DNA from: an uncultured Bacilli bacterium
GTDB lineage: Bacteria; Bacillota_I; Bacilli_A; RF39; UBA660
Reading direction: 5' to 3'
Assembly (NCBI GenBank): GCA_947626115.1
Contig: CANQQX010000012.1
Coordinates: forward strand, 1-35,515
Length of the DNA: 35,515 nt
Part shown: piece by piece, positions 7 to 2,823 of the stretch
How positions within the stretch are numbered: position 1 is the first letter of the stretch
Layout: every line of letters starts with the position of its first letter
Notes under the pieces: model-generated
Database searches by the model: none
The model's input: the letters and a program-made list of their open reading frames with translations, nothing else
Told to the model about the DNA's origin: nothing
Made by a program: the position numbers and the translations under genes

Positions 7-66
7 AACATAAAAATGTAGGTTTTCCTACAAAATTATATTAGCCAAAACCTACATTTTTATGTT
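7..66. repeat. 20-bp perfect inverted repeat (AACATAAAAATGTAGGTTTT / AAAACCTACATTTTTATGTT) with 20-nt spacer; probable terminator or element end
   Basis: Arms 7-26 and 47-66 are exact reverse complements; nested alternative hairpin TGTAGG-TTTT-CCTACA at 17-32. Confidence 0.85.
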
Positions 67-707
67 GACATTATCATTCCTGTTGCTTTATACCAACTAA
101 ATCTGTTATTTCCTAGTTCTTTAACTGGTGTTTGTTTTATAAGTTTCATTTCTCCTTCTGGCGTTATTCCTATTATTCTGTACATATAATGATCTTTATC
201 ATTTGTACATTCTTCACTTTCTTTTGTGCCAAAACATATGTAGTTATCATTTACTAACTCACTTGTCCCTTGATATCTATACATATCTCCTTGATCTGGA
301 TTCGGACTTAAACTCTTTGGTTTACTTGCTACTATATCTAACGCATTTATTGTTGTCTTTTTATCAAAATATAATGTACAATATACTGTCTTATTTGTTG
401 TTAATGTTACTTTTCCATTATTGTATTTTACTATATTACTGTCTATCTTACTTCCTTTATTATCTACACATTTTGCTTCTTTAAATTTATATCCTTCACC
501 GGGCCATTTATTATCTTTACTTATATACTCTTCATATCCTGTTTCATTTTGAACCATTACTGCAAATCTTTTAGGATTATTTATTTCATTTGTTTCTGGT
601 AATGATTTACTATTATCTTTCATTAAACTTTTAATACTTACAATTGTTATTATTAATAACATTATTAAAACTACCATAATATATTTTTTATTTTTATTTA
701 TTTTCAT
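60..707 (-). CDS. Membrane-anchored extracytoplasmic protein of unknown function, possibly C-terminally truncated
   Basis: N-terminal hydrophobic segment (YIMVVLIMLLIITIVSI) followed by a polar domain; AGGAG-type RBS (complement of 715-719) upstream of ATG at 707; ends abruptly after ...SWYKATGMIMST inside a hairpin arm. Confidence 0.7.
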   Translation of the reverse strand: MKINKNKKYIMVVLIMLLIITIVSIKSLMKDNSKSLPETNEINNPKRFAVMVQNETGYEEYISKDNKWPGEGYKFKEAKCVDNKGSKIDSNIVKYNNGKVTLTTNKTVYCTLYFDKKTTINALDIVASKPKSLSPNPDQGDMYRYQGTSELVNDNYICFGTKESEECTNDKDHYMYRIIGITPEGEMKLIKQTPVKELGNNRFSWYKATGMIMST

Positions 708-738
708 ACTGACTCTCCTATTACTATAAGATAATTAT

Positions 739-767
739 AATATACCCCCCCCGAATCTGTCCGACAA
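739..767 (-). promoter_or_regulatory. Putative minus-strand promoter with a G8/C8 tract in its spacer, driving ORF 60..707
   Basis: On the minus strand TTGTCG, 17 nt (including G8), TATATT; the -35-like box lies in the IS terminal repeat. Confidence 0.35.
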
Positions 768-858
768 TTCACATATACTATATTATTATATAATCTTATA
801 AATTTATTATAAGGCAAATTACCCCCCCCGAGTCAACCATTTTTTGTTTATATTTTTT

Positions 859-907: not shown

Positions 908-2671
908 ATGTATAAAATAGGCTTTGATCGAAATCAACTTGCTCTTTTTCCTACTTCTTTAGATGATATGATTGACAAAGATAGTATTGTTCGTGTTATC
1001 GATGCTTTTGTTGATTCTATTAATTTTGCTAATTTTAATTTTAAATATTCTCAACCTAATTCTAAAGGTAACAGACCTTTTGATCCAAAAGATTTAACTA
1101 AACTTTATTTATTTGGTTACAACAAAAAGGTTCGTTCTTCTCGTTCTCTTATGTATTTTGCTAAAACTAATATTGAGTGTATCTGGCTTCTTAAAGGTTT
1201 AACTCCTGACCATCGTACTATCTCTGATTTTCGTAAAGATAATGCTAATAACCTTAAATCTATTTTTTATGAGTTTAACCTTTCTTTAAAAGAACTTGGC
1301 TCTCTTTCTAATATTGAGTCTCAAGATGGTGTTAAAATTATCGCTGTTAATTCTAAAGAAAAAAACTTTACTTTAAATAAAGTTGATGATCGTATTAATA
1401 GAATTAAAAAACATATTGATGATTATCTTAATATGGTTAATTTTTATGATATTATGGAAAATTATGAAAATCTTAATGATGCTGACAAAGTTAAAAAACT
1501 TATCGAAAATATTGATGAATTTGTTAATAATGATCCTTCTTTTGATAAAGAACAATATGTTGCTGAATTAAAAAATTATATCAATAAACTTGATCATTAT
1601 CAAAACATTCAAAACACTATAACAAAAAATGGTGATACTCAAATTTCTTTAACTGATAAAGAAGCTAAATTAATGAAAAACAATGGTAAATTTAATGTTT
1701 GTTATAACAACCAAGTCCTTGTTGATGAGAATCATTTTGTAACTGACTTTTCAGTTACTGATAAACCTGCTGACTTAGGTAGCATTACTGATATATCTAC
1801 TAATGCTAAAAAAATTTATGACTTTGAAACTTTAACTAATATTACTGATAAAGGTTACAACAAACGTGAAGATATGGTTAGTGCTCTTGAAAATGGTATT
1901 ATTCCAGAGGTTACTCCTAGCAAAAAGCAAGACGATTCTTATTCTCTTGAAACTATATATGAAGAAAATGAAATTACTGATGATATGATTAATAGTTTAA
2001 AAAGTGATGATATTCAAAAATGTTTACGTGCTGGTGTTGTACCTAATATTTATAAAGATAAAATTGATAATATTGAAATTAAAGAAAAAACTATTGTGGA
2101 AAACGATAATACTATTATTGATGATAATGTTAGTGAACAAGAATTAAGAGACAAAGCAATTAATGACCATTGCTTTACAAGACATATAAAATCTAATATA
2201 GTCTTTTGTCCAATGGGTGAAACTTTAAGAAAAAAATCTGTTAACAAATCTGCTACTAGATATTGTAATAAACTTGCTTGTAAAAATTGTAAAAATCCTT
2301 GTTGTAATTCAAAATATAAAACTGTTGATTTTAAAAAAGGTCAAAGTATTGTTATTCCTAAAAATAACAATACTCTTAAAATGACTAGAAAAAAATCTAA
2401 AAAAAAGAAAATTAAAGTTGTTTGTTTTGAATTTAAAATTGACAAAGATTTAATTAAAAAACGAATGTCTTTATCTGAACTTCCCCACGCAATGTTAAAA
2501 AGATGCCGAGATGCTAGTTATGTTTTACTCAAAGGCAAGAAAAAGGTAACTGGAGAATGTGCAATTTACTATTGTGCTGAGAATATTTTGCATGCCAAAA
2601 ATTTAATTGGTGTTGATAAATTAATTGAATATTTCAATAATAAAAAGGATAATATACTAAAAATAGCATAA
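908..2671 (+). CDS. IS1182-family-like DDE transposase
   Basis: N-terminal DUF772-like segment (FDPKDLTKLYLFGYNKKVRSSRSL...DHRTISDFRKDN), SQDGVKI, DKEAKLMKNNGKFNVCYNNQVLVDENHFVTDFSVTDKPADLGS, ITDKGYNK, Cys-rich CNKLACKNCKNPCC; RBS AAGGTG upstream of ATG. Confidence 0.9.
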   Translation: MYKIGFDRNQLALFPTSLDDMIDKDSIVRVIDAFVDSINFANFNFKYSQPNSKGNRPFDPKDLTKLYLFGYNKKVRSSRSLMYFAKTNIECIWLLKGLTPDHRTISDFRKDNANNLKSIFYEFNLSLKELGSLSNIESQDGVKIIAVNSKEKNFTLNKVDDRINRIKKHIDDYLNMVNFYDIMENYENLNDADKVKKLIENIDEFVNNDPSFDKEQYVAELKNYINKLDHYQNIQNTITKNGDTQISLTDKEAKLMKNNGKFNVCYNNQVLVDENHFVTDFSVTDKPADLGSITDISTNAKKIYDFETLTNITDKGYNKREDMVSALENGIIPEVTPSKKQDDSYSLETIYEENEITDDMINSLKSDDIQKCLRAGVVPNIYKDKIDNIEIKEKTIVENDNTIIDDNVSEQELRDKAINDHCFTRHIKSNIVFCPMGETLRKKSVNKSATRYCNKLACKNCKNPCCNSKYKTVDFKKGQSIVIPKNNNTLKMTRKKSKKKKIKVVCFEFKIDKDLIKKRMSLSELPHAMLKRCRDASYVLLKGKKKVTGECAIYYCAENILHAKNLIGVDKLIEYFNNKKDNILKIA

Positions 2672-2823
2672 TATATTCATCTATATTTTGCTATTTCTAA
2701 TATTTTTTTTATTTTTTAAATTTTTATCTTATTTTTTTACTTTAATAATTAAAATTTATTTAATTTTTTTATTTGTCGGACGGTCTCCCCCCGAGAGTCA
2801 ATAGAATCAATTTTTTTAATAAC

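What the first reader, a model, noticed from the sequence alone, without database searches (positions are those of the whole stretch)
739..767. C8/G8 homopolymer forms the spacer of a putative promoter: possible phase variation of a surface protein
On the minus strand the sequence reads TTGTCG-GACAGATTCGGGGGGGG-TATATT, with a 17-nt spacer whose last 8 bases are a G run, positioned about 25-30 nt upstream of the start of a membrane-anchored protein. G8 runs are extreme outliers in this AT-rich DNA. Homopolymers between -35 and -10 are an established slipped-strand phase-variation architecture (e.g. Neisseria porA). The -35-like box would come from the IS terminal repeat, so the insertion may have created the switch.
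Basis: partly seen in the sequence, partly recalled or inferred. Interest (0 to 1): 0.6.

Follow-up and report, generated by a model that had tools for sequence, protein, structure and literature searches.

The report
Genome-wide poly-G switch promoters for surface proteins
The odd run of eight Gs is one of about fifty near-identical runs in this small gut bacterium's genome, nearly all sitting inside the promoter of a predicted surface-protein gene where gaining or losing a G would change expression, and a mobile element has inserted itself into this one.

Summary
The G8 tract and its neighbours are exactly as described. It is not a one-off, and the IS did not create it. The 1.27-Mb genome has 49 runs of at least eight Gs (about 0.6 expected); nearly all share one architecture, TTGA(C/T)T–G8–TATAAT, upstream of paralogous membrane-anchored or secreted proteins. 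The same oriented motif occurs in 32 of 38 genomes of the genus (524 sites against 8 in the reversed control), is patchy across the family, and is at background level elsewhere in the class. In two relatives, near-identical promoters differ in tract length (8 or 9) about half the time. Three relatives carry a G9 tract inside the first codons of ~500-aa membrane proteins, out of frame. Best explanation: slipped-strand phase variation of a surface-protein repertoire, mostly by promoter spacing (porA / tp0126 type), at regulon scale. In the window, an IS1182-like element split the native promoter inside its G tract, separating the original –35 (2793–2801) from G8/–10 (734–752). All nine IS junctions seen in four genomes abut G5–G8 tracts in one orientation. 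The window gene also looks truncated. Switching and length-dependent expression are inferred, not shown.

The parts
745..752 (-). G8 tract (gene strand), promoter-proximal copy of the interrupted native tract
   Evidence: same context in nearly all of the other G7-G9 promoter tracts of the genome
734..739 (-). Native -10 TATAAT, 5 nt downstream of the G tract (position conserved in this promoter class)
739..744 (-).
762..767 (-). TTGTCG, -35-like hexamer contributed by the IS terminal repeat
713..718 (-). Shine-Dalgarno-like GGAGAG
60..707 (-). Membrane-anchored surface protein (family C), truncated to 215 aa; a close intact paralogue is 428 aa
753..2786 (+). IS1182-like element inserted in the G tract; terminal repeats GAATCTGTCCGACAA (753-767) and, inverted, AGACCGTCCGACAA (2773-2786)
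   Evidence: other copies in G000, G010, G017, G005
908..2671 (+). Transposase, 587 aa, DUF772 domain
   Evidence: Pfam PF05598 E=1.7e-11
2787..2792 (-). G6, promoter-distal copy of the interrupted tract
2793..2801 (-). TTGACTCTC: the original -35 and spacer start, now about 2 kb from its -10
   Evidence: same as intact paralogous promoters in L027 and L032
822..829 (-). Second G8, inside the left end of the IS, in an outward-facing promoter-like sequence
831..836 (-). -35 TTGACT of the IS outward promoter; -10 candidates TATAAT 806-811 (spacer 19) or TTATAA 807-812 (spacer 18)
7..66 (.). 20-bp inverted repeat at the contig edge, end of a second element that truncates the surface-protein gene
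   Evidence: the flanking sequence TTTTTATGTTGACATTATC recurs in L093

Best explanation
The G8 tract is one unit of a genome-wide set of slipped-strand switches. About 50 promoters of paralogous membrane-anchored and secreted proteins carry a pure G7-G9 tract in the -35/-10 spacer. Gain or loss of a G during replication changes the spacer (15, 16 or 17 nt in the main class of this genome; mostly 17-19 in the class whose tract abuts the -10) and so RNA polymerase binding and expression, giving each cell a different surface repertoire. In the window, an IS1182-like element that targets such tracts inserted within the G run, splitting one of these promoters. Shown: the motif, its orientation, its gene association, its conservation, length polymorphism among near-identical promoters, out-of-frame coding tracts in relatives, and the IS junctions. 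Inferred: slippage within a population, effect of spacing on transcription, surface exposure and the biological purpose.
For: (1) 49 runs of at least G8 against about 0.6 expected; at least 46 precede predicted membrane or secreted proteins, most starts 26-100 nt downstream. (2) 24 of 24 class-i promoters found with a tract-blind pattern have a pure tract (G7 x2, G8 x21, G9 x1). (3) Genus: 524 oriented sites in 32 of 38 genomes against 8 reversed-control sites (summed by hand); elsewhere in the class 64 against 86, no bias. (4) Tract length: G000 7:5, 8:44, 9:4; G009 7:1, 8:14, 9:16, 10:2; G003 8:18, 9:7. Pairs with at most 3 of 60 flank mismatches differ in length in 42 of 86 (G009) and 13 of 25 (G003). 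On the G009 paralogue tree length changes 8 times against 8.6 +/- 1.3 for shuffled labels. (5) In G015, G025 and G028 a G9 tract lies about ten codons after an SD-preceded ATG, and that ATG is out of frame with a ~500-aa membrane-protein frame, the classic translational version of the same switch. (6) Precedent: T. pallidum tp0126 and tprL promoter poly-G tracts, tp0126 optimal at 17-nt spacing (PMC7864442).
Against: In the window's own genome lengths are narrow (44 of 53 are G8) and near-identical promoter pairs did not differ (0 of 5), so switching there may be slow. MutS is present, so mismatch repair is not obviously missing. Some family members have tract-less promoters (4 of 17 in family A; more than half of family C). 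No reads, RNA data or isolates were available; the genomes look like metagenome assemblies whose homopolymer lengths are consensus calls.
Confidence: 0.8

Rival explanations
1. The G tract is a fixed cis-element, for example a binding site of a dedicated regulator or a structural requirement of these promoters, that marks a surface-protein regulon. Length varies neutrally by a base or so without a switching role.
For: Strong modal length of 8 in G000; conserved tract-to-(-10) offsets of 0 or 5; a TACA-N7-TGTA palindrome upstream of many class-ii promoters suggests further regulation.
Against: Length has no phylogenetic signal among near-identical promoters of G009; the tract sits at variable distance from the -35; similar tracts occur in N-terminal coding sequence out of frame in three relatives.
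Confidence: 0.15
2. One reading: the IS insertion created a new hybrid promoter (IS TTGTCG, 17-nt spacer, TATATT) that switches the downstream gene.
For: Exact 17-nt spacing; TTGTCG matches 4 of 6 and TATATT 5 of 6 of the consensus hexamers.
Against: The tract and -10 are native and found in about 50 promoters without an IS; the original -35 is on the far side of the IS (2793-2801); the IS carries a better outward -35 (TTGACT 831-836); the gene looks truncated.
Confidence: 0.1
3. Assembly or sequencing artefact: the tract length differences are homopolymer errors in draft assemblies.
For: The genomes searched are multi-contig drafts; many contigs end beside these repeated promoters.
Against: Lengths cluster tightly (7-10), the core promoter around the tract shows no indels in the near-identical copies, and the tracts are located and oriented non-randomly (524 against 8); artefact could explain length scatter but not the motif.
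Confidence: 0.05

Closest known systems
Treponema pallidum tp0126 and tprE/G/J/L promoter poly-G phase variation (PMC7864442)
   Same: Poly-G of about 7-11 in surface-protein promoters; for tp0126 between -35 and -10 with 17 nt optimal; variable within isolates
   Different: In T. pallidum the poly-G loci (17 further ones surveyed there) lie at varied positions in a GC-rich genome; here about 50 promoters of one shared design in a 27% GC genome of an unrelated lineage, plus an IS that targets the tracts
Neisseria meningitidis porA promoter poly-G (as discussed in PMC7864442)
   Same: Poly-G between -35 and -10; spacing sets transcription
   Different: One gene, not a paralogous repertoire with a shared promoter
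Multigene surface repertoires of mycoplasmas (M. gallisepticum vlhA promoters, PMC6258824, abstract only; M. hyorhinis vlp from memory)
   Same: Families of surface proteins with simple repeats in or near each promoter
   Different: GAA or A-tract repeats rather than G tracts; not shown to be related to these protein families
IS1182 family, e.g. IS1272 (PMC5678879)
   Same: Single transposase gene with terminal inverted repeats; structure-biased target choice is known for the family
   Different: IS1272 targets inverted repeats; here every junction seen lies in a poly-G tract

Membership tests
Promoter-spacer homopolymer phase variation (porA / tp0126 type) | Homopolymer lies between -35 and -10 | tested here: met
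   -35 TTGAYT, tract, -10 TATAAT/TATACT in most promoters; at the window locus itself the -35 has been displaced by the IS
Promoter-spacer homopolymer phase variation (porA / tp0126 type) | Single-base tract changes move the spacer through or around 17 nt | tested here: met
   15/16/17 for G7/G8/G9 in G000; 15/16 for G8/G9 in G009 and G003
Promoter-spacer homopolymer phase variation (porA / tp0126 type) | Tract length is hypervariable | tested here: met
   Among paralogues of G009 and G003; within one population not testable; own genome narrow
Promoter-spacer homopolymer phase variation (porA / tp0126 type) | Expression depends on tract length | not testable with these tools
   No RNA or reporter data
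Promoter-spacer homopolymer phase variation (porA / tp0126 type) | Controls surface-exposed products | tested here: inconclusive
   N-terminal hydrophobic helix or signal peptide in the families read, weak LPXTG match in family D; no experimental localisation
IS1182 family transposon | DUF772 + DDE transposase | tested here: inconclusive
   PF05598 (DUF772) E=1.7e-11, over cut-off; the DDE_Tnp_1_6 hit is below its cut-off; family name recalled from memory, no ISfinder comparison
IS1182 family transposon | Terminal inverted repeats | tested here: met
   GTCCGACAA core shared by both ends
IS1182 family transposon | Palindromic target (reported only for some members, so not decisive) | tested here: not met
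   Nine of nine junctions are G5-G8 tracts, not palindromes

The most novel reading that the evidence does not exclude
The IS1182-like element is specialised on phase-variation switches: it recognises poly-G tracts, always inserts with its left end toward the gene, and brings its own outward G-tract promoter, so the captured surface gene stays expressed and switchable under the element's promoter.
Probability: 0.35. Interest if true: 0.75.

Novelty: new variant of a known kind. Interest (0 to 1): 0.62.

Why it matters
A family of gut Bacilli known here only from uncultured draft genomes would carry unusually dense promoter-type phase-variable repertoires: about 50 switches of one design in a 1.27-Mb genome, in a host-associated lineage where surface variation is largely unexplored. 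The pattern can be tested directly in existing metagenome reads, without culture. The mobile element that targets the switches would be a rare case of a transposon using a hypermutable regulatory repeat as its niche.

Tried and rejected
Viral contigs: the promoter pattern was not found. A class-wide search with the narrow pattern GGGGGGGTATAAT misses the main promoter class and was replaced by GGGGGGGTAWW. Loss of mismatch repair as the driver: MutS is present. Pfam and NCBIfam give no confident family for the main protein families apart from DUF6591 and an InlB-like repeat in two minor ones; FGE-sulfatase for family A is below cut-off. Structure of the window family is low confidence (pLDDT 61) with no significant PDB match; the family A model is too poor to use (pLDDT 46). 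Literature: no paper found combining RF39 with phase variation, and none holding all terms for an IS inserted into homopolymeric phase-variation tracts.

Full report
Observation. In a genome of about 27% GC (25% in the window) the expectation for runs of eight or more Gs is about 0.6; there are 49 distinct runs, 45 of length 8 and 4 of length 9.

What it is. Listing all runs showed that nearly all lie in one context: TTGA(C/T)T, about three bases, the G tract, five bases, TATAAT, then a start codon mostly within 100 nt. Two further layouts exist: a class with TAATATATACT after the tract, and a class whose tract abuts the -10 with 7-11 bases after the -35 hexamer. A pattern blind to the tract content found 24 class-i promoters, all with pure G tracts. 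At least 46 of the 49 runs precede proteins with an N-terminal hydrophobic helix or signal peptide, most of them paralogous: family A (17 genes, 13 with a tract), family B (all clear members with a tract), family C, which includes the window gene (fewer than half with a tract) and smaller families.

Spread. The oriented motif GGGGGGGTAWW occurs in 32 of 38 genomes of the genus, 524 times against 8 for the reversed control (sums by hand). In 288 genomes of the order, all bearing one family code, it is patchy, with tens of copies in several genera. In 106 genomes of other families of the class the counts are 64 against 86 in the control, so there is no excess. Group codes carry no names; related named records are 'uncultured Bacilli' MAGs (isolate names Lapin-007 and Lapin-016). 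Placement in GTDB order RF39 is my inference only.

Why a switch. In G009 about 25 promoters are nearly identical in flanks yet have G8 or G9 in about equal numbers; pairs with at most 3 of 60 flank mismatches differ in tract length in 42 of 86 cases, in G003 13 of 25. On a tree of the G009 copies tract length changes 8 times, as for shuffled labels (8.6 +/- 1.3). In the window's own genome the spread is smaller (7:5, 8:44, 9:4), and the five most similar promoter pairs do not differ. In G015, G025 and G028 a G9 tract follows an SD-preceded ATG by about ten codons, and the start is out of frame with about 500 aa of membrane protein. That is the coding-sequence form of the same device and argues against a pure DNA-binding role. 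Spacers pass through 15-17 nt (mostly 17-19 in the abutting class), the range in which promoter strength is sensitive; tp0126 of T. pallidum is optimal at 17 (PMC7864442).

The IS. The element 753-2786 has a DUF772 transposase and short terminal inverted repeats. Its two flanks are the two halves of a family-C promoter: TTGACTCTC-G6 on one side, G8-TATATTATAAT on the other, matching the intact paralogous promoters in L027 and L032. The C runs on the + strand are in the same direction at both ends, so they are duplicated target, not inverted repeat. All nine junctions available from complete and partial copies in four genomes abut G5-G8 tracts, with the left end always toward the gene side. The left end carries an outward promoter-like sequence with its own G8 in the window and in G010; in G017 the tract is degenerate. 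So the IS did not make the switch: it landed in one. Whether its outward promoter drives the gene is unknown.

State of this locus. The window gene ends after 215 aa where a close paralogue has 428 aa, at the edge of a second element with a 20-bp inverted repeat. It may be inactive whatever its promoter does.

Limits. The assemblies are drafts; homopolymer lengths are consensus calls; no reads or RNA were available. The statements on hyorhinis vlp and on general promoter spacing rest on memory.

Noticed in passing
window 7-66: 20-bp perfect inverted repeat (AACATAAAAATGTAGGTTTT) at the contig edge that truncates the surface-protein gene; the same flank sequence lies just upstream of a G8 promoter in L093 of another genome.
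   Followed up: partly
L017, L019, L025, L031, L034, L040 and others, about 20-35 nt upstream of the -35: Palindrome TACA-N7-TGTA upstream of many class-ii G-tract promoters: possible binding site of a shared regulator.
   Followed up: no
L075, L084, L087 (G015, G025, G028): G9 tract inside the first codons of ~500-aa membrane proteins, with the start codon out of frame: translational phase variation candidates.
   Followed up: yes
L207, L145, L118 (family B/C proteins): Family B and C proteins share a C-terminal region, typically ending in VRPVFYL...GTGT..PY, with no Pfam or NCBIfam match: an unnamed surface domain.
   Followed up: partly
G000 C5:36757-37781 (L204): A family A gene behind a G8 promoter is split into two ORFs (265 and 226 aa): apparent pseudogene among the repertoire.
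   Followed up: no
G003 contigs C6, C7, C12, C18, C26, C27, C34, C37: Many contigs end within about 130 nt of a G-tract promoter, so repertoire size is probably underestimated in draft genomes.
   Followed up: no
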